Assembly: GCF_007970665.1 (NCBI RefSeq)
Contig: NZ_CP042430.1
Coordinates: forward strand, 2,108,001-2,172,000
Source: Baekduia soli
Lineage (GTDB): Bacteria; Actinomycetota; Thermoleophilia; Solirubrobacterales; Solirubrobacteraceae
DNA: 64,000 nucleotides
Reading direction: 5' to 3'
Under the pieces are notes generated by a model. That model saw only the letters and a list, made by a program, of their open reading frames with translations, had not been told where the DNA came from and did no database searches. Below, in pieces: positions 48,517 to 58,561 of this stretch; positions within the stretch are counted from its first letter, which is position 1, and every line of letters begins with the position of its first letter. A program made the position numbers and the translations under genes.

Positions 48517-48804
48517 TCAATGGCAGGGCGTCGGGGCCGGGGATGCGCCCACCCTGAGCGCACGACCGTCCAAGTCGAAGGACAGCAGGCCCGATTCGAC
48601 GAGGAAGAGTTCGTCCTCGCGGCTGTGCACGTGCCGCGCCGGGCTGAAGCCCGCGGGCATGGTGGAACGGAACGCGGTGATGCGGCCGTCCGTGGCGCGG
48701 GCCGGAACCGGGAACTCGAACAGCGCATCGCCGAACCACCAAGCCTCGGCCTCCTGGGCGAGGGAGGGTGCGGCCGACGCCTGCTCTGCGGTCAACGTGC
48801 TCAT
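48517..48804 (-). CDS. Truncated cupin-domain protein, island copy
   Basis: A 95-residue protein starting MSTLTAEQASAAPSLAQEAE. The cupin core has FSPARHVHSREDELFLVESG, a typical H-x-H...E metal site, then SFDLDGRALRVG, after which it runs into unrelated ASPAPTPCH and stops. The second half of the beta-barrel is missing, so it may be non-functional. It begins 5 nt downstream of the full-length cupin and shares its transcript. A shorter sister copy is at 50888-51109. Confidence 0.6.
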   Translation of the reverse strand: MSTLTAEQASAAPSLAQEAEAWWFGDALFEFPVPARATDGRITAFRSTMPAGFSPARHVHSREDELFLVESGLLSFDLDGRALRVGASPAPTPCH

Positions 48805-48809
48805 CGGGG

Positions 48810-49181
48810 CTACACCGCCCAGGGGAGCGGCACGCCGTCCTGCTGCGCGGTGCTGGCTCGGACGCCGGACCGGCTGGAGACCAGCGTCACGGCCGGCGAG
48901 TCGGCGCGGTTGACGAGCTGGCGCTGGTCGCCGGCCGGCAGGACGGCGGACGCGCCCGCGCGCAGCGTGCGGGTCTCGCCTCGGAGCGTCAGTTCCAGCT
49001 CGCCGTCGATCACGACGATGACCTGCTCGCCGTCGACGACGTGCACCGGGCCGGTCGCGCCGGCCTCCATCTCGACGCTCCACACCGCGAGCTCGGTGCC
49101 CGTCAGCGCCCGGCTCGCGTACGTGTGCATCACCGCGTTCGGCGTCTCGTGGCGCCGGGGGACCTGCGCGATGTCGCTCAT
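48810..49181 (-). CDS. Cupin-domain protein, island copy
   Basis: A 123-residue small cupin. The barrel motif GPVHVVDGEQVIVVIDG keeps one His and the Glu but replaces the second metal His with Val; motif 2 has LPAGDQRQLVN. AAGGAGG lies 6 nt before the ATG. Nearly identical (about 6 of 123 residues differ) to the copy at 51114-51485. It is divergent from a MarR gene with shared CAACC/GGTTG palindromes, so the MarR protein probably represses both. Confidence 0.82.
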   Translation of the reverse strand: MSDIAQVPRRHETPNAVMHTYASRALTGTELAVWSVEMEAGATGPVHVVDGEQVIVVIDGELELTLRGETRTLRAGASAVLPAGDQRQLVNRADSPAVTLVSSRSGVRASTAQQDGVPLPWAV

Positions 49182-49201
49182 GGCGACCTCCTTGGATTCG
49201 A

Positions 49202-49240
49202 CAACCATGTTGGCTAGTTTGCCAGAGGTCAACCAGGTTG
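49202..49240. promoter_or_regulatory. Twin MarR-type operators, island copy
   Basis: CAACCATGTTG at 49202-49212 and the perfect palindrome CAACCAGGTTG at 49230-49240, in the divergent gap between the cupin and MarR genes, centres 28 bp apart. The wider sequence also pairs GACAACC with GGTTGTC. Conserved in the second cassette. Confidence 0.65.
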
Positions 49241-49254
49241 TCTAGTCTGTGGGT

Positions 49255-49713
49255 ATGGCTCCTGCGGATCCGCTGCCCCTCGCCCGGCTGTTGAGCGCCG
49301 CGACCCAGATGGCCGTGCGCGCCCTGAACGCCACGCTCGCCGAGCGCGGCTACCCGGATCTACGACCTGCCGACGGCTATGCCCTGCTCGCCCTGGGCGA
49401 GCGCGGCGCCACCGCCTCCCAACTCGGGGCGCGGCTCGGCATCACCAAGCAGGCCGCGGCGAAGATCGCCGCCCGCCTGCAAGAGGCCGACTACCTCGTT
49501 CGTGCCGACCACCCGCACGACGGACGAGCCCGGCTTCTGCAGCGATCGCCGCGCGGCGAGGCGCTGTTGCAGGACGCCGCCGAAGTCCAACGCCACATAG
49601 AACGTGACTGGGCTCGAACGATCGGCGCGGCGCACATGGCCGATCTGCGATCCGCGCTGGAGGCCGTGCTGGAACGCTCTGGCGAGGACCGTCCGCTCGC
49701 TGGGCTCTGGTGA
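49255..49713 (+). CDS. MarR family regulator, island copy
   Basis: A 152-residue winged-helix regulator. The HTH is TASQLGARLGITKQAAAKIA, the wing VRADHPHDGRARLLQRS, and the dimer helices flank it. Domain order and length are normal. About 6 of 152 residues differ from the copy at 51559-52017. It is divergent from the cupin and probably autoregulated through the palindromes at 49202-49240. Confidence 0.87.
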   Translation: MAPADPLPLARLLSAATQMAVRALNATLAERGYPDLRPADGYALLALGERGATASQLGARLGITKQAAAKIAARLQEADYLVRADHPHDGRARLLQRSPRGEALLQDAAEVQRHIERDWARTIGAAHMADLRSALEAVLERSGEDRPLAGLW

Positions 49714-50887: not shown

Positions 50888-51109
50888 TCACCGTGGCGAT
50901 CCAACGAGGAGGAGCTCGTCCTCGCGGCTGTGCATGTGCCGCGCTGGGCTGAAGCCCGCGGGCATGCTGGAACGGAACGCGGCGATGCGGCCGTCCGTGG
51001 CGTGGGCCGGAACGAGGAACTCGAGCAGCGCATCGCCGAACCACCAAGCCTCGGTCTCCTGGGCGAGGGAGGGTGCGGCCGACGCCTGCACTGCGGTCAA
51101 CGTGCTCAT
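50888..51109 (-). CDS. Truncated cupin-domain protein, external copy
   Basis: A 73-residue version of the protein at 48517-48804: MSTLTAVQASAAPSLAQETE, then FSPARHMHSREDELLLVGSPR and stop. It is cut about 20 residues earlier than the island copy, at the left edge of the duplication. Both are thus fragments of a cupin whose C-terminal half is missing from this window. Confidence 0.5.
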   Translation of the reverse strand: MSTLTAVQASAAPSLAQETEAWWFGDALLEFLVPAHATDGRIAAFRSSMPAGFSPARHMHSREDELLLVGSPR

Positions 51110-51113
51110 CGGG

Positions 51114-51485
51114 CTACACCGCCCAGGGGAGCGGAACGCCGTCCTGCTGCGCGGTACTGGCTCGGACGCCGGACCGGCTGGAGACGAGCGTCATGGCCGG
51201 AGAGTCGGCGCGGTTGACGAGCTGGCGCCTGTCGCCGGCCGGCAGGACGGCGGACGCGCCCGCGCGCAGCGTGCGGGTCTCGCCTCGGAGCGTGAGTTCC
51301 AGCTCGCCGTCGATCACGACGATGACCTGCTCGCCGTCGACGACGTGCACCGGGCCGGTCGCGCCAGGCTCCATCTCGACGCTCCACACCGCGAGCACGG
51401 TGCCCGTCAGGGCCCGGCTCGCGTACGTGTGCATCACCGCGTTCGGCGTCTCGTGGCGCCGCGGGACCTGCGTGACGTCGCTCAT
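51114..51485 (-). CDS. Cupin-domain protein, external copy
   Basis: A 123-residue cupin nearly identical to the one at 48810-49181. The changes are conservative (for example PGATGPVHVV for AGATGPVHVV, and AGDRRQLVN for AGDQRQLVN). AAGGAGG precedes the ATG. It is divergent from its own MarR gene, with both palindromes preserved. Metal-site Glu and one His are kept. Function unknown; small cupins paired with MarR often belong to oxidative or aromatic-stress responses. Confidence 0.82.
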   Translation of the reverse strand: MSDVTQVPRRHETPNAVMHTYASRALTGTVLAVWSVEMEPGATGPVHVVDGEQVIVVIDGELELTLRGETRTLRAGASAVLPAGDRRQLVNRADSPAMTLVSSRSGVRASTAQQDGVPLPWAV

Positions 51486-51505
51486 GGCGACCTCCTTGGA
51501 TTCGA

Positions 51506-51544
51506 CAACCATGTTGCCTAGCTTGGCAGAGGTCAACCAGGTTG
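51506..51544. promoter_or_regulatory. Twin MarR-type operators, external copy
   Basis: CAACCATGTTG at 51506-51516 and CAACCAGGTTG at 51534-51544, the same spacing as in the island cassette; the intervening bases differ at a few positions, which supports selection on the palindromes. Confidence 0.65.
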
Positions 51545-51558
51545 TCTAGTCTGTGGGC

Positions 51559-52017
51559 ATGGCTCCTGCGGATCCACTGCCCCTCGCCCGGCTCTTGAGC
51601 GCCGCGACCCAGATGGCCGTGCGCGGCCTGAACGCCACGCTCGCCGAGCGCGGCTACCCGGATCTGCGACCCGCCGACGGCTATGCCCTGCTCGCCCTCG
51701 GCGAGGGCGGCGCCACCGCCTCCCAACTCGGGGCGCGGCTCGGCATCACCAAGCAGGCCGCGGCGAAGATCGCCGCCCGCCTGGAAGAGGCCGGCTACCT
51801 GGTTCGTGCCGACCACCCGCACGACGGACGAGCCCGGCTCCTGCAGCGATCGCCGCGCGGCGAGGCGCTGTTGCAGGACGCCGCCGAGGTCCAACGCCAC
51901 ATCGAACGTGACTGGGCTCGAACGATCGGCGCCGCGCACATGGCCGATCTGCGAGTCGCGCTGGAGGCCGTGCTGGAGAGCTCTGGCGAGGACCGTCCGC
52001 TTGCTGGGCTCTGGTGA
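51559..52017 (+). CDS. MarR family regulator, external copy
   Basis: A 152-residue winged-helix protein almost identical to that at 49255-49713, with the same recognition helix (GITKQAAAKIA). It should bind the same operators, so the two cassettes are expected to cross-regulate. Upstream of it lies the shared divergent promoter with the cupin. Confidence 0.87.
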   Translation: MAPADPLPLARLLSAATQMAVRGLNATLAERGYPDLRPADGYALLALGEGGATASQLGARLGITKQAAAKIAARLEEAGYLVRADHPHDGRARLLQRSPRGEALLQDAAEVQRHIERDWARTIGAAHMADLRVALEAVLESSGEDRPLAGLW

Positions 52018-53734: not shown

Positions 53735-55183
53735 TCAGCCTGTGTTGTCGGTCTCGGAGACCGCGGGGTTGGGGACGAGGACCACGAGGGTGCTGTCGTC
53801 GGACAGGGGGTCGTGGATGGCCTCGCGCACGGCGTCCTCGACGGCCCGCAGGGTCCCGGCGGCGGAGGCCATCGGCGCCTTGGCCACGGCCGCGCGCACG
53901 CCCTCCAGGCCGAGCGTGCCCCCGGCGGCCAGCGGGCGGTCGACGATCGCGTCCGAGAGCAGCAGCAGCCGGTCGCCGTCCCGCAGCCGGCGGCTCTGGA
54001 CCTCCGGGTCTCGTGGCATCCGCGCTGCGCCGATCTGGGGCAGGACCCCGTCGCCGAGCACCTCCAGCTCGCCGGCGGCGTCGATCAGGACCGGCGCGTG
54101 CTCGCCGCAGGTGAGCCAGCGCACCGTCGATGTCGGTCCGCTCCAGGTCGCGATGGTGACGTGGGCCTTGGACCGGCCGCGCGAGACCTCGCGGAGGATC
54201 TCGTGCATGGCGCGGACGACGCGGGCCGGGTCGTCGGTGTCGTGGCGGGTGGCGCGGAACGCGCCGAGGATCACCGCCCCGAGGCCCGCCGCCCGGGGAC
54301 CCATGCCCTCCGTGTCGGCGATCCCGATCCACGCGCAGTCGCGGTTCTCGGCGTAGTCGAACCAGTCGCCTCCGATGTCATAGCCCGGCAGGACGTTGCC
54401 GGCGACCCGCGCACCGCCGATCCGCAGGATCCGGGGCGGCAGCAGGTTCTGCTGGATCTCGGCCGCCGGGCTGGTCGGGCGGACCCGGCGTGCGCTGCCG
54501 ATGGCGTCGGTGTACTCGTCGGCCAGGGCCAGGACGGCGGCGGCCTCGGCGGCCAGGTCGCGCAGGGCGTCGTCGGCGGCGCCCATCGCCATGAGCACGC
54601 CGGTCGCGCGACCGCGCAGGTACATCGGCGCCACGACGATCCCGGGCAGTGCCTCCTCGATGCTCGCGCGCAGCGGCTCGACGCCCTCGCGCGGGATCTC
54701 GGGACCCACCGCCATGGGCACGGGCAGCGTGCGCGGGAATCCGCCGCCTCCGGACATCCGCTGCAGGGTCGTGCCGTCCAGGTCGCAGAGGTAGATCGCC
54801 GCGGCGCTGACGCCGGACAGCCGCTGCGCCTCGGCGACGATCTGGTCGCCAAGCTGGAACGGGGGCACCTTGTTGAGGACCTCGGTGACCGACAGCGGCG
54901 TCGGGGCCCGGTGGGCCAGCTCCCCCGCCGGGCGCACGAACTCGAGCTCGTTGGCCTCGGCGTCGTCGCGCTCCTGGCGCCGGACCGCGTCGATCAGGGC
55001 TTCGCGGTTCTCGAAGTGCCGGTAGAGCGTCGGGCGCCCCAGCCCCGCCGCCGCGGCGACCGCCGCCATGCTGGCTCCCGGCTCGTCGGCCAGGAGGTGG
55101 CGGGCGGCCTCCACGATCTTCGTTCGGTTCAATGCCGCGTCGCTGCGCCGGCGCCGACGCCGCTGGGGGCTCTCCTCGGTCAT
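53735..55183 (-). CDS. TetR-type HTH / GAF / SpoIIE-type PP2C phosphatase fusion
   Basis: A 482-residue fusion. Residues about 18-66 are a TetR N-terminal HTH (RTKIVEAARHLLADE, LGRPTLYRHFENREALIDAV). Residues about 96-230 look like a GAF domain (VSAAAIYLCDLDGTTLQRMS, GVLMAMGA). Residues about 240-475 are a SpoIIE/PP2C phosphatase: AEIQQNLLPP linker, GGDWFD at 271-276, IADTEGMG at 288-295, LLLLSDAIVDR and SDDSTLVVL. Metal Asp residues are kept; the usual GDVxGHG is changed to ADTEGMG. Instead of a TetR ligand domain it has a sensor plus phosphatase, so DNA binding may be tied to partner switching. Divergent from a STAS gene across an AGACA-TGT-TGTCT palindrome. Confidence 0.85.
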   Translation of the reverse strand: MTEESPQRRRRRRSDAALNRTKIVEAARHLLADEPGASMAAVAAAAGLGRPTLYRHFENREALIDAVRRQERDDAEANELEFVRPAGELAHRAPTPLSVTEVLNKVPPFQLGDQIVAEAQRLSGVSAAAIYLCDLDGTTLQRMSGGGGFPRTLPVPMAVGPEIPREGVEPLRASIEEALPGIVVAPMYLRGRATGVLMAMGAADDALRDLAAEAAAVLALADEYTDAIGSARRVRPTSPAAEIQQNLLPPRILRIGGARVAGNVLPGYDIGGDWFDYAENRDCAWIGIADTEGMGPRAAGLGAVILGAFRATRHDTDDPARVVRAMHEILREVSRGRSKAHVTIATWSGPTSTVRWLTCGEHAPVLIDAAGELEVLGDGVLPQIGAARMPRDPEVQSRRLRDGDRLLLLSDAIVDRPLAAGGTLGLEGVRAAVAKAPMASAAGTLRAVEDAVREAIHDPLSDDSTLVVLVPNPAVSETDNTG

Positions 55184-55206
55184 CCCGTGATCCTACCGCT
55201 GAAACA

Positions 55207-55219
55207 AGACATGTTGTCT
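55207..55219. promoter_or_regulatory. Operator palindrome of the TetR-SpoIIE fusion
   Basis: AGACA-TGT-TGTCT in the 110-nt gap between the divergent fusion and STAS genes, 24 nt from the fusion start. The 11-bp core GACATGTTGTC is repeated exactly at 58262-58272. Likely autoregulatory site. Confidence 0.6.
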
Positions 55220-55293
55220 CGTCTAAGTGTGTCCCGTTTCGGGGCTCGGCGCCCCGGGCACGCACGTGCCAAGCACCGCTGCCGGGAGAGCAC

Positions 55294-55695
55294 ATGAACG
55301 ATGATCGCGACGACCGCGCCGTCCGACGCGCTCGATGGACCGCGCACCAGGTTCGACGTCGTCGAGCCGACTCGGTCCAGGCGGACACGTTCCGCATACG
55401 GGTCGACGACGACGCCGAAGTCCCGCGCCTGGTCCTGGCCGGCGACGTTGACATCGGTGCTCTTCCCCGGGTGCGCGCTGCGCTGAGGTCCGTCCTGGCG
55501 GCGGCGCCCGAGGCGGTCGACGTCGACTTCAGCGAGGTCGAGCTCCTCGAGACGACTGCTGCCGCGGTCCTGGCGCGGACGCAGGCGGCGGCATCCGAGC
55601 AGGGCGTCTCGCTGCGAATGACCGGCGCGCGAGGCGTCCCGGCGCGCCTGCTCAAGCTGGCCGGCGCGCGGGGAGTCGGGATCGAGTCCGAGTGA
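55294..55695 (+). CDS. STAS-domain (anti-sigma-factor antagonist-like) protein
   Basis: A 133-residue protein with a basic N-terminal extension of about 30 residues and a STAS domain: FRIRVDDDAEVPRLVLAGDV, VDVDFSEVELLETTAAAVLA and LLKLAGARGVGIE. In typical antagonists the phosphorylated Ser sits in D-S-x-G; here the loop is LETTAAA, so phospho-control would need a Thr or is lost. As in partner switching, the SpoIIE-type phosphatase next door could act on it. GGGAGAG precedes the ATG. No anti-sigma kinase is adjacent. Confidence 0.8.
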   Translation: MNDDRDDRAVRRARWTAHQVRRRRADSVQADTFRIRVDDDAEVPRLVLAGDVDIGALPRVRAALRSVLAAAPEAVDVDFSEVELLETTAAAVLARTQAAASEQGVSLRMTGARGVPARLLKLAGARGVGIESE

Positions 55696-55724
55696 CCGGA
55701 CGATTTCCGTCGCGCCGGTGCGTT

Positions 55725-55743
55725 GTCGCTGATTGTCAGCGAC
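55725..55743. terminator. Perfect 8-bp hairpin after the STAS gene
   Basis: GTCGCTGA, loop TTG, TCAGCGAC. It may end the STAS transcript and separate it from the following genes. Confidence 0.5.
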
Positions 55744-55765
55744 GGCGCCGGATGTCTCGGTTGTC

Positions 55766-55791
55766 GTTTGCGCCGCCAGGCGTCCGGGGAT
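55766..55791 (+). promoter_or_regulatory. SigB/SigF-like promoter candidate
   Basis: GTTT at 55766-55769, 16-nt spacer, GGGGAT at 55786-55791, close to the GTTT-N14-16-GGGTAT promoters read by SigB/SigF-class factors. It lies about 43 nt before the ATG at 55834, and a sigma factor of that class is encoded at the end of the same gene run. Confidence 0.45.
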
Positions 55792-55833
55792 CGCTGCGCC
55801 CACAGCAAGTTCCTCGAGTCCTCAGGAGGACCG

Positions 55834-56421
55834 ATGACGCAGATGGACGCCGGGACCGGCGAGCAGGTCAGGGAGAAGGCGGGCGCGGTTGCGGGCCAGG
55901 CGCAGGAGAAGGCCCAGCAGGCGGCGGGCCGGCTCGGTGATCAGGCACGTGCCCAGATCGACGAGCGGTCGACCGATGTCGGACGGAGGGTGGGCGAGCA
56001 GGCCGCCGACCTGCGGGCGGTGGGCGATCAGCTACGGCAGCAGGGCAAGGATCGCCCGGCGCGGCTGGTCGATGAGGCGGCGCATCACGTCGAGCGCGCG
56101 GGGGGTTGGCTGCAGGAGTCTGACGCCGACGCGATCCTGGATGACGTCGAGGACGCGGCGCGCAAGAACCCGTGGGCCGTGGTGGCCGGCGGCGTGGTGC
56201 TGGGCCTCGCGGCGTCGCGGTTCCTGAAGGCTTCCAGCGGCGACCGGTACCGCACCCGCGGCCTGGGTGCCGACGTGCGTCGGGGCGCGCTGCCCGCACC
56301 CGCGGCGGCGGGTCCCGATCAGCGCTTCACCCGTGCGGCGGCCCCGGCCGCTCCCACGATGGCCGATCCGCCCGCCGACAGCCCGCAGGTCCCGCCGCCG
56401 ACGGGTTCGGGGGCGCTGTAG
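55834..56421 (+). CDS. Coiled-coil stress protein with C-terminal membrane helix
   Basis: A 195-residue protein with an AGGAGG ribosome site. Residues about 10-110 are helical and rich in Ala/Gln/Arg (REKAGAVAGQAQEKAQQAAG), similar to YqjD/CsbD-like tethering proteins. NPWAVVAGGVVLGLAASRFL forms a membrane helix near residue 120-140. The C-terminus is Pro-rich. Proteins of this type with DUF883/DUF1469/DUF3618 partners are induced in stationary phase or stress in other bacteria, but I infer function only by analogy. Confidence 0.7.
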   Translation: MTQMDAGTGEQVREKAGAVAGQAQEKAQQAAGRLGDQARAQIDERSTDVGRRVGEQAADLRAVGDQLRQQGKDRPARLVDEAAHHVERAGGWLQESDADAILDDVEDAARKNPWAVVAGGVVLGLAASRFLKASSGDRYRTRGLGADVRRGALPAPAAAGPDQRFTRAAAPAAPTMADPPADSPQVPPPTGSGAL

Positions 56422-56826
56422 ATGGCGGCCCAGGGAGATGCGACGGATCTGCGCGAGCGGTCCGTCGGCGAGCTGCTCAGGCAGCTTTCGGAGGAGACCT
56501 CGACGCTGGTGGGCCAGGAGCTGGCGCTGGCCCGTGCCGAGCTCGAGCAGCAGGGCAAGCGCGCCGGCATGGGCGCGGGCATGCTCGGTGGGGCCGGTGT
56601 AGCCGGCCTGCTCACGCTGGGCGCGCTGACGGCCACCGTGGTCGCGGTGCTGGACAGCGCCATGGCGCTCTGGCTGGCCGCGCTGATCGTGACCGTGCTG
56701 TGGGCGGCGGTCGCTGGAGTCCTGGGCCTGCAGGGCCGCAACAAGATCAAGCAGGCCACGCCGCCTGCGCCGCAAACCGTCGAGACCGTGAAGGAGGACG
56801 TGCGATGGGCCAAGACCCGGACATGA
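56422..56826 (+). CDS. Phage-holin-like (DUF1469, Actinobacteriota holin family) membrane protein
   Basis: A 134-residue protein with the family opening SVGELLRQLSEETSTLVGQE and LARAELEQQGKRAG, then two membrane helices (GAGVAGLLTLGALTATVVAV and ALWLAALIVTVLWAAVAGVL). It starts directly after the stop of the coiled-coil gene. Despite the name the family is not known to lyse cells; it is found with DUF3618 and stress genes. Confidence 0.82.
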   Translation: MAAQGDATDLRERSVGELLRQLSEETSTLVGQELALARAELEQQGKRAGMGAGMLGGAGVAGLLTLGALTATVVAVLDSAMALWLAALIVTVLWAAVAGVLGLQGRNKIKQATPPAPQTVETVKEDVRWAKTRT

Positions 56827-57338
56827 TCCGCAGGGACATCGAGAACACGCGCGAGCGCATGGGCGACACCGTCGATGCGCTGGGCTACAAGACCGACGTC
56901 AAGGCTCGCGCCAGGGACTCGGTGACCGACAGGGTCGGCTCGGTCAAGGAGCGCCTGGTCGGCGTCCGCGACGCCGCCGATGACGCGACGCCCGGTGTCG
57001 CCGACGTCAAGCAGGGCACCCGGCGCGCTGTCGGCGTGGCCCAGGAGAACCCGCTCGGTCTCGCCATCGGCGCCGTCGCGGTGGGCTTCCTGGCGGGGAT
57101 GCTGCTCCCGGGCACCGGGGTCGAGAACGACCGCCTGGGCCCCATGGCCGACCAGGTCAAGGAGCAGCTCAAGGACAGCGGCCAGGAGGCGCTGGAGCAC
57201 GGCAAGGCCGTGGTCTCTGAGACCGCCTCGACGGCGGTGCACGCCGCCAGCCAGACCGCGCAGGAGCACGGCGCCGAGCTGCGCCACAGCGCGCAGGACA
57301 ACGCGCAGACCGCACGCGAGGGCATCAGCAGCCGCTGA
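56805..57338 (+). CDS. DUF3618 family protein
   Basis: A 177-residue protein: the diagnostic IRRDIENTRERMGDTVDALG near the start, a membrane segment NPLGLAIGAVAVGFLAGMLL at about residue 85-105 and a helical Gln/Ala/His-rich C-terminus. AGGAGG lies just before the ATG, which overlaps the end of the preceding gene by 22 nt, so these two are coupled. Function of the family is unknown; the constant company of DUF1469 suggests a membrane complex. Confidence 0.83.
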   Translation: MGQDPDMIRRDIENTRERMGDTVDALGYKTDVKARARDSVTDRVGSVKERLVGVRDAADDATPGVADVKQGTRRAVGVAQENPLGLAIGAVAVGFLAGMLLPGTGVENDRLGPMADQVKEQLKDSGQEALEHGKAVVSETASTAVHAASQTAQEHGAELRHSAQDNAQTAREGISSR

Positions 57339-57343
57339 TCCCC

Positions 57344-57372
57344 GGCGGGGCGCGACCCGGTCGCGCCCCGCC
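57344..57372 (+). terminator. Perfect 13-bp hairpin before the sigma factor
   Basis: GGCGGGGCGCGAC, loop CCG, GTCGCGCCCCGCC. It is the strongest hairpin in the window and lies 6 nt after the DUF3618 stop. It either ends the stress-protein transcript or attenuates expression of the sigma gene 40 nt downstream. Confidence 0.65.
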
Positions 57373-57411
57373 CTCGGCCCCGGCCGCGTGCGCCGGCACC
57401 CACTGCGTCCC

Positions 57412-58201
57412 ATGCACCCCACGACACGATCGGATCGCCGGACAGACCCTGCGGCCAGGAGGACGGACGACGTCCTGCTCCGCCGGTTCGCGGCGACACG
57501 AGATCCGGCGATCCGAGAGCGCCTCATCCACCGCTACCTCCGGCTGGCGCGGTACGCCGCCGCGATGTACGCGCAGGGCTCCGAGCCCTTCGACGACCTG
57601 GTGCAGGTCGCGTGCGTCGGTCTCGTCAAGGCCTTGGACCGCTTTGACCCGGACCGCGGCGCGGCGTTCAGCAGCTACGCGCTTCCGACGATGTCGGGCG
57701 AGCTGCGCCGCCACTTCCGCGACCACAGCTGGGCCGTGCGACCGCCGCGTGATCTCCAGGAGCAATCGCTGCGCGTCGAGCGCGCCCAGGAGGACCTCAG
57801 CCGCGAGCTCGGCCATTCACCGACCGTCGACGAGGTCGCGCGCCGCTGCGGCCTGTCGGACGAACTTGTGCTGGAGGCGCGTCAGGCACTCGCGGCCCGC
57901 CGGTTCACCTCGCTCTCGGCCCCCCCCGGCGGGCGCCGGCGACGCTGACGGCGGCCTCGAGATCGTACTCGGAGCCGAGGACTCCAACTTCACCGTCGCC
58001 GAGGACCGCGCCACGATCGCCTCGCTGATCCGCAGGCTCACGCCACGGGAGCGCGAGATCGTGCGCTTGCGCTTCGAGGAAGACCTGACTCAGGCCGAGA
58101 TCGGCGAGATCGTCGGGCTGTCGCAGATGCACGTCTCGCGGGTGCTGCGCACCGCCGTGGAGAAGCTCCGCGGCGTCGCGGAGGCCGGTTCCGTCCACTG
58201 A
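57412..58201 (+). CDS. SigB/SigF-class RNA polymerase sigma factor, shifted at a C8 tract
   Basis: Regions 2.1-2.4 are in the first frame (YLRLARYAAAMYAQG, FDDLVQVACVGLVKALDRFD, FSSYALPTMSGELRRHFRD), and region 3 (GHSPTVDEVARRCGLSDELV) follows. At C8 (57920-57927) the frame ends in GGRRRR; region 4 (LTPREREIVRLRFEEDLTQA, VGLSQMHVSRVLRTA) is in another frame. Removing one C, or adding two, gives one protein of about 262 residues. Class assignment rests on the QMHVSR motif and length. A general-stress role is inferred from the neighbouring SpoIIE/STAS proteins. Confidence 0.83.
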
Positions 58202-58561
58202 CGGCTCGCGCGGGAACCCGTTGTGTGACGAGCCCTGGGCGAGCACGAAACGGCGAGAGCGGACATGTTGTCGCACGACGCGAAGCGTTCGCGATCCACG
58301 CTCGCATCCGGGCGCGCTGCCGGCACGTGGTCGGGGACATCGGGTGGGGGGGCCGCGCCAGGACGCTGTCGGCACGCCGGCGGTTGCGACGGTGCCACAG
58401 CCTGGGAGACCCCGGTTGGGATCATGGTCTCACCAGGCGGTCCGGGACGATGTCCTGCTCTGAGAAGGGCGAGGTGTCGCCGGCGCGCATCAGTCGTCCC
58501 CGCCCCCTATCCCCGGGCGGGGACGCTGAGGTGGCGGAAGCGGCCGGGACCCGGCGCGCGT
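58202..58561. other. Stretch without a supported gene, with an operator copy
   Basis: About 360 nt between the sigma and glycosyltransferase genes. It contains the exact 11-bp palindrome core of the TetR-SpoIIE operator at 58262-58272 but no frame with a ribosome site or family signature. Confidence 0.45.
58262..58272. promoter_or_regulatory. Second GACATGTTGTC palindrome
   Basis: GACA-TGT-TGTC, identical to 55208-55218, about 60 nt after the sigma stop. Both copies are preceded at some distance by GAAAC (55201 region and 58247 region). It is a likely second binding site of the TetR-SpoIIE fusion. Confidence 0.5.

What the first reader, a model, noticed from the sequence alone, without database searches (positions are those of the whole stretch)
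53735..58201. TetR-HTH/GAF/SpoIIE fusion heading a stress-sigma module without an anti-sigma kinase
Seen: one 482-residue protein joins a TetR DNA-binding head to a GAF-like sensor and a SpoIIE-type PP2C phosphatase with its metal Asp residues largely kept. It is divergent from a STAS protein and followed by a coiled-coil membrane protein, DUF1469, DUF3618 and a SigB/SigF-class sigma factor. Known: SpoIIE phosphatases usually dephosphorylate STAS antagonists phosphorylated by an RsbW-like kinase. Inference: DNA binding and partner switching may be combined in a single protein, so the phosphatase could also repress its own promoter in response to the GAF signal.
Basis: partly seen in the sequence, partly recalled or inferred. 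Interest (0 to 1): 0.78.

Follow-up and report, generated by a model that had tools for sequence, protein, structure and literature searches.

The report
DNA-binding phosphatase fusion (TetR-GAF-SpoIIE)
A soil actinobacterium and its relatives carry one protein that joins a DNA-binding head, a sensor domain and a stress-signalling phosphatase, and a conserved DNA site in front of its own gene suggests that it controls its own gene as well as acting on the stress pathway.

Summary
The fusion is real. Window 53735-55183(-) is one 482-aa ORF with TetR_N (E 1.3e-10), a GAF fold and a SpoIIE-type PP2C (E 4e-23) that keeps its metal Asp residues. It is not a one-off: TetR-GAF-SpoIIE proteins occur in some 30 genomes of the same class, form one clade beside TetR-less GAF-SpoIIE paralogues, and were not seen outside the class in a 396-genome phylum sample. 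Upstream regions carry a palindrome, GRGACA-N3-TGTCYC. GACA-N3-TGTC ranks first of 2,304 palindromes tested; GRGACANNNTGTCYY occurs once in the 5.2-Mb genome, between the fusion and the divergent STAS gene. Relatives link the fusion to partner switching: fusion-STAS-RsbW-type kinase in a row, fusion-kinase, fusion-sigma, a divergent STAS. Best reading: an autoregulatory DNA-binding switch phosphatase of a SigB-type stress pathway, with its kinase encoded elsewhere in this genome. Corrections: the missing kinase is only a local gap, the STAS-sigma arrangement is not conserved, and the sigma gene is frame-broken here at a C8 run. No publication of this architecture was found. DNA binding, phosphatase activity and their coupling are untested.

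The parts
53735..55183 (-). TetR-GAF-SpoIIE(PP2C) fusion gene, 482 aa
   Evidence: single ORF; Pfam TetR_N and SpoIIE; conserved family; AlphaFold model pLDDT 84.6
54983..55117 (-). TetR_N helix-turn-helix, residues 23-67
   Evidence: Pfam E 1.3e-10; R50, T52, R55 invariant in 25 homologues; dN/dS 0.10-0.53
54476..54892 (-). GAF-like domain, about residues 98-236
   Evidence: Pfam sub-threshold, 3 of 25 homologues hit; model pLDDT 88 matches GAF structures
53768..54466 (-). SpoIIE-type PP2C phosphatase domain, about residues 240-472
   Evidence: Pfam E 4.1e-23; metal Asp residues kept; Foldseek to RssB, Rv1364c RsbU part, SpoIIE
55206..55220 (-). candidate operator GAGACAACATGTCTT (GRGACA-N3-TGTCYC) in the divergent promoter region
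   Evidence: family-wide enrichment; strict form GRGACANNNTGTCYY once in the genome
55294..55695 (+). single-domain STAS protein, 133 aa, divergent from the fusion; acceptor region LLETTAAAVL
   Evidence: Pfam STAS_2 E 5e-12; NCBIfam ant_ant_sig superfamily below its cut-off; motif compared with 16 other STAS of the genome
55766..55790 (+). SigB-type promoter-like site GTTTGC-N14-GGGGA before the coiled-coil gene
   Evidence: same kind of site at the same place in L029 and L086; 0.013 expected per region
55834..56421 (+). coiled-coil protein with one apparent TM segment, 195 aa
   Evidence: no Pfam family over cut-off; homologues beside the fusion in 5 other loci
56422..56826 (+). PF07332 (former DUF1469, holin-X) membrane protein
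   Evidence: Pfam E 1.4e-36; recurs near the fusion
56805..57338 (+). DUF3618 protein
   Evidence: Pfam E 1.7e-14; recurs near the fusion
57412..57948 (+). SigB/F/G-type sigma factor, regions 2-3 (first part of a frame-broken gene)
   Evidence: Pfam and NCBIfam
57949..58201 (+). sigma region 4, continuing in another frame after the C8 run 57920-57927
   Evidence: Pfam Sigma70_r4 E 6e-18 in the ORF 57644-58201; full-length homologues in relatives

Best explanation
The protein is a cytoplasmic GAF-regulated switch phosphatase of a SigB-type partner-switching pathway that has gained a TetR DNA-binding head and binds its own promoter. Proposed mechanism: as a dimer it occupies the palindrome GAGACAACATGTCTT (55206-55220) between its gene and the STAS gene, and so limits transcription of itself and probably of the STAS antagonist. 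A signal sensed by the GAF domain changes the dimer, rotates the PP2C switch helices and activates dephosphorylation of a STAS anti-anti-sigma protein (this one and/or others). The freed STAS protein binds an RsbW-type kinase encoded elsewhere in the genome and releases a SigB-type sigma. Shown by computation: the fusion, its single origin and conservation, the kept catalytic residues, the conserved operator-like site, and genetic linkage to STAS, kinase and sigma in relatives. Inferred: actual DNA binding, repression rather than activation, the substrate, the GAF signal, and any coupling between DNA binding and catalysis.
For: Fusion conserved at 39-82% identity and one clade on the tree. Every domain, the HTH included, is under purifying selection. 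Catalytic Asp residues kept; fold matches RsbU/RssB/SpoIIE phosphatases. GACA-N3-TGTC with at most 1 mismatch in 16 of 30 TetR-type upstream regions against 1.4-2.5 expected, 0 of 4 in TetR-less paralogues; 3 of 13 later-fetched loci perfect; first of 2,304 palindromes; strict form once in the genome, at this promoter. L180: fusion-STAS-HATPase_c_2 in a row; L184: fusion-HATPase_c_2; L179, L098: fusion-sigma; L046: divergent STAS.
Against: No binding or phosphatase data. The palindrome is strong in the window's subclade but missing upstream of many more distant homologues. STAS and sigma are not adjacent in the two nearest relatives. The window STAS has a degenerate acceptor motif (ETTA for DSSG). 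The sigma gene is frame-broken in this assembly.
Confidence: 0.62

Rival explanations
1. The protein is mainly a one-component transcription regulator. The TetR head binds the operator, GAF senses, and the PP2C part serves for dimerisation or as an adaptor with little phosphatase role, as in E. coli RssB.
For: TetR head and operator conserved; Gly of the SDG motif is Ala in the window protein and its two nearest relatives; good Foldseek matches to RssB.
Against: All metal-binding Asp positions are kept across the family, PP2C is under purifying selection, and STAS/kinase genes lie beside homologues.
Confidence: 0.15
2. The protein is mainly a switch phosphatase. The TetR head no longer regulates genes but serves as a dimerisation or protein-docking module, and the palindrome is the site of another regulator.
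For: TetR-less paralogues with the same GAF-PP2C core also lie next to STAS genes; the palindrome is absent upstream of many distant homologues; the head evolves somewhat faster than GAF and PP2C in several pairs.
Against: R50, T52 and R55 of the HTH are invariant, and the palindrome goes with the TetR-type genes, is absent from the four TetR-less ones tested and is unique in its strict form here.
Confidence: 0.17
3. The locus is a decaying stress module: sigma is a pseudogene and the STAS acceptor is lost, so the window arrangement is not functional although the family is.
For: Frame change in sigma at a C8 run; ETTA acceptor in STAS; the arrangement differs from the nearest relatives.
Against: The fusion itself is intact and under purifying selection. 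A C8 run is a usual place for assembly error. Thr at the acceptor can be phosphorylated in principle, and another STAS of the genome has the same ETT motif.
Confidence: 0.06

Closest known systems
RsbU/RsbP-type PPM switch phosphatases of the general stress response (B. subtilis; PMC12143880)
   Same: N-terminal sensor plus C-terminal SpoIIE-type PP2C with conserved metal Asp residues; linkage to STAS and RsbW-type genes in relatives
   Different: Carries a TetR DNA-binding head and a candidate operator at its own promoter; in this genome no RsbW gene is adjacent
RssB of Pseudomonas aeruginosa and RsbU part of M. tuberculosis Rv1364c
   Same: Best structural matches of the PP2C part; Rv1364c is also the best PDB sequence match
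   Different: RssB has a receiver domain and Rv1364c a PAS and fused kinase/STAS parts (domain content from general knowledge); neither has a DNA-binding head
TetR-family autoregulatory repressors
   Same: TetR_N HTH and a palindromic site in a divergent promoter beside the regulator's own gene
   Different: The usual all-helical ligand domain is replaced by GAF and PP2C; one genus keeps a helical region plus PAS (L091, 723 aa)
TetR-less GAF-SpoIIE paralogues (own genome 4391464-4392573; L099-L101)
   Same: Same GAF-PP2C core, sister lineages on the tree, three of four beside a STAS gene
   Different: No HTH head and no palindrome upstream

Membership tests
SpoIIE/RsbU-type PPM phosphatase | SpoIIE-family PP2C fold | tested here: met
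   Pfam E 4.1e-23; Foldseek to RssB, Rv1364c, SpoIIE
SpoIIE/RsbU-type PPM phosphatase | conserved metal-binding Asp residues | tested here: met
   D273, D290, D411, D462, D463 kept
SpoIIE/RsbU-type PPM phosphatase | dephosphorylates a STAS protein | not testable with these tools
   needs an enzyme assay
TetR family regulator | TetR_N HTH | tested here: met
   Pfam E 1.3e-10, over cut-off; 25 of 25 homologues
TetR family regulator | C-terminal all-helical ligand/dimerisation domain | tested here: not met
   replaced by GAF and PP2C in sequence and model
TetR family regulator | palindromic operator near its own gene | tested here: met
   enriched palindrome, strict form unique in the genome; binding itself untested
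SigB-type partner-switching module | phosphatase, STAS antagonist, RsbW-type kinase and sigma encoded together | tested here: inconclusive
   window: phosphatase, STAS and a frame-broken sigma, no kinase; L180 phosphatase-STAS-kinase; L179, L098 phosphatase-sigma
SigB-type partner-switching module | phosphorylatable Ser/Thr in the DSSG/DSTG motif of STAS | tested here: inconclusive
   ETTA in the window STAS (Thr present, D and G changed); DSSG in L180

The most novel reading that the evidence does not exclude
A partner-switching phosphatase whose catalytic state and DNA occupancy are coupled in one dimer: operator binding and PP2C switch-helix engagement are alternative or mutually reinforcing states set by the GAF signal, so that one sensing event is reported both to a promoter and to the anti-sigma circuit.
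Probability: 0.3. Interest if true: 0.78.

Novelty: new variant of a known kind. Interest (0 to 1): 0.6.

Why it matters
Switch phosphatases are known with several kinds of sensor domain, but DNA-binding PP2Cs have hardly been reported: a 2025 census says there were few studies of them (PMC12088040). Here a whole clade has one, with a candidate operator that makes the claim directly testable. If true, one protein joins transcriptional and post-translational control of a stress sigma pathway, and it would help explain how Thermoleophilia wire their many SigB-type circuits.

Tried and rejected
Chance read-through fusion: rejected, since more than 40 homologues are fused. A conserved adjacent STAS partner as a general rule: rejected. 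A wide regulon for the operator: the strict form occurs once in the genome; the loose core GACAnnnTGTC occurs 61 times against 28 for the reversed control, so weak sites elsewhere are not excluded and were not followed. SigB-type promoter-like sites before the fusion, STAS or sigma gene: none. Counting palindromes with one mismatch over all words is dominated by GC-rich words and is not informative. Five literature searches found no TetR-SpoIIE description.
Full report
What is there. The ORF 53735-55183 on the minus strand encodes 482 residues without interruption. Pfam finds TetR_N at residues 23-67 (E 1.3e-10) and SpoIIE at 282-469 (E 4.1e-23), both over their cut-offs, and a sub-threshold GAF at 113-212. 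AlphaFold gives a confident model (mean pLDDT 84.6) with a helical head, a low-confidence linker at 78-94, an alpha/beta middle domain and a phosphatase domain. Foldseek matches the phosphatase part to P. aeruginosa RssB, the RsbU part of Rv1364c, SpoIIE, SiaA and RsbX. Folded alone, the middle domain (pLDDT 88) has GAF domains among its best matches (3ci6, 5w10 and others).

Active site. In an alignment of 30 homologues, D276 and D463 are invariant and D273, D290, D411 and D462 are at least 90% conserved. By motif position, D290, D411 and D462/D463 correspond to the SpoIIE metal ligands D628, D746 and D795 (PMC5468089; the correspondence is my reading of the motifs). The Gly of the SDG motif is Ala in the window protein and its two nearest relatives. 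The motif AAEIQQ-LLPPR that leads into the phosphatase is conserved too. An active enzyme is likely but not shown.

The family. Searches in related genomes find full-length TetR-GAF-SpoIIE proteins at 39-82% identity in Conexibacter, Solirubrobacter, Patulibacter and unnamed relatives. In a sample of 299 genomes of the class, 31 have a strong match, about 26 of them with the TetR head (23 in one continuous match, three of the longer kind described below). In a 396-genome sample of the phylum, all matches outside the class begin after the TetR part. On a tree of the GAF-PP2C core the TetR-bearing proteins form one group beside TetR-less GAF-SpoIIE paralogues (SH-aLRT 90). The two apparent exceptions inside it are L092, whose TetR head lies in another frame, and L182, whose head the motif search missed. 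One gain of the head is the simplest account. One genus has a longer version, TetR-helical region-PAS-GAF-SpoIIE (L091, 723 aa). All domains are under purifying selection (dN/dS 0.10-0.53 for the head), so the head is maintained.

A candidate operator. In the 110 bp between the fusion and STAS genes lies GAGACAACATGTCTT (55206-55220), 22 bp before the fusion's start codon. Upstream regions of homologues show the same imperfect palindrome, GRGACA-N3-TGTCYC. Allowing one mismatch in GACA-N3-TGTC, 16 of 30 TetR-type upstream regions have it against 1.4 (same loci) to 2.5 (shuffles) expected; 5 are perfect against about 0.1; 0 of 4 TetR-less paralogues have it; and spacer 3 stands out among spacers 0-12. 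In loci fetched afterwards, 3 of 13 scored were perfect and 5 of 13 had at most one mismatch. Among all 2,304 half-site/spacer combinations, GACA with spacer 3 ranks first for perfect matches (6 of 27 non-redundant upstream regions). Control upstreams reach 2%, some of which share the same intergenic region, and binomial P is 1.3e-5 before correction for the number of words, about 0.03 after it. In this genome the form GRGACANNNTGTCYY occurs exactly once, at this promoter. The 11-mer GACATGTTGTC occurs twice in the genome, here and at 58262, both inside this locus. Limits: the motif is strongest in the window's own subclade and missing near many more distant homologues. It was first seen by eye, so the unbiased ranking and the later loci carry the weight.

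Partner switching. The divergent gene 55294-55695 is a single STAS domain, but its acceptor region reads LLETTAAAVL where most STAS proteins of the genome read FMDSSGL or similar. No RsbW-like gene lies nearby; the genome has eight strong HATPase_c_2 loci elsewhere and 17 STAS domains. In relatives the link is clearer. L180 has fusion, STAS with an intact DSSG motif, and a HATPase_c_2 protein in a row on one strand. L184 has fusion then HATPase_c_2. L179 and L098 have fusion then a SigB-type sigma (L098's fusion is frame-broken). L046 has a divergent STAS. Three of four TetR-less paralogues lie beside a STAS gene. The phosphatase therefore very probably serves partner switching, with the kinase in trans in this genome.

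The neighbourhood. The coiled-coil, PF07332 and DUF3618 genes and a YihY-like gene recur beside the fusion, and a PRC-barrel-like gene is divergent from it in many relatives (the names YihY and PRC-barrel are from memory of the sequence type). In the two nearest relatives (L029, L086) the fusion is convergent with the coiled-coil/PF07332/DUF3618 operon, and neither STAS nor sigma is adjacent. The exact arrangement in the window is thus local. A SigB-type promoter-like site (GTTTGC-N14-GGGGA in the window) precedes the coiled-coil gene in the window and in both relatives, with an expected rate of 0.013 per region (consensus GTTTAA-N12-14-GGGWAW in PMC8346170). This suggests, but does not show, that the operon belongs to a SigB-type regulon.

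A caveat on sigma. The sigma gene is split between two frames at a run of eight C (57920-57927), while homologues in related genomes are full length. An assembly error is the simplest cause; a real frameshift cannot be excluded. The genome has several other SigB-type sigma genes.

Comparison with the literature. Searches of open papers found no TetR-SpoIIE fusion. A 2025 census of bacterial PP2C proteins remarks that few studies report DNA-binding PP2C phosphatases (PMC12088040). Activation of such phosphatases by ordered linkers and dimerisation is established (PMC12143880, PMC5468089) and offers a natural way to couple a dimeric TetR head, GAF and PP2C, but that coupling is inference. Subscription papers and preprints were not searched and no domain-architecture database was available, so 'undescribed' means not found here.

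Verdict. A real, conserved, clade-specific architecture that is a new variant of a known kind of signalling phosphatase, with good comparative evidence that its DNA-binding head acts on its own promoter. A role in stress signalling is well supported by linkage in relatives; the coupling mechanism is open.

Noticed in passing
window 48517-49713 and 50888-52017: Near-duplicate tandem copies of a three-gene cassette (two small cupin-like proteins and a MarR-type regulator; the MarR hit was checked by Pfam for one copy).
   Followed up: no
window 57920-57927: A C8 run at which the sigma gene changes frame; assembly error, pseudogene or slippage site not resolved.
   Followed up: partly
window 58262-58272: Second and only other genomic copy of GACATGTTGTC, 60 bp after the sigma stop and between convergent genes, with no obvious promoter role.
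   Followed up: partly
own genome 124571/124607, 1271733/1271784, 1961188/1961210: Pairs of GACAnnnTGTC sites 22-51 bp apart elsewhere in the genome; they may mark targets of this or another TetR regulator.
   Followed up: no
L091:7625-9793 (-): A 723-aa version, TetR with a helical region, PAS, GAF and SpoIIE, divergent from the coiled-coil/PF07332/DUF3618 operon.
   Followed up: partly
L040, upstream of 4249: Two strict palindromes in opposite forms (GGGACAGCGTGTCTC and GAGACACGCTGTCCC) 27 bp apart upstream of the fusion gene.
   Followed up: no
L036, L037, L039, L172 (Patulibacter group): Here the fusion is divergent from a gene that looks like DUF2294 (name from memory, not scanned), a consistent partner different from the window's STAS.
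   Followed up: no
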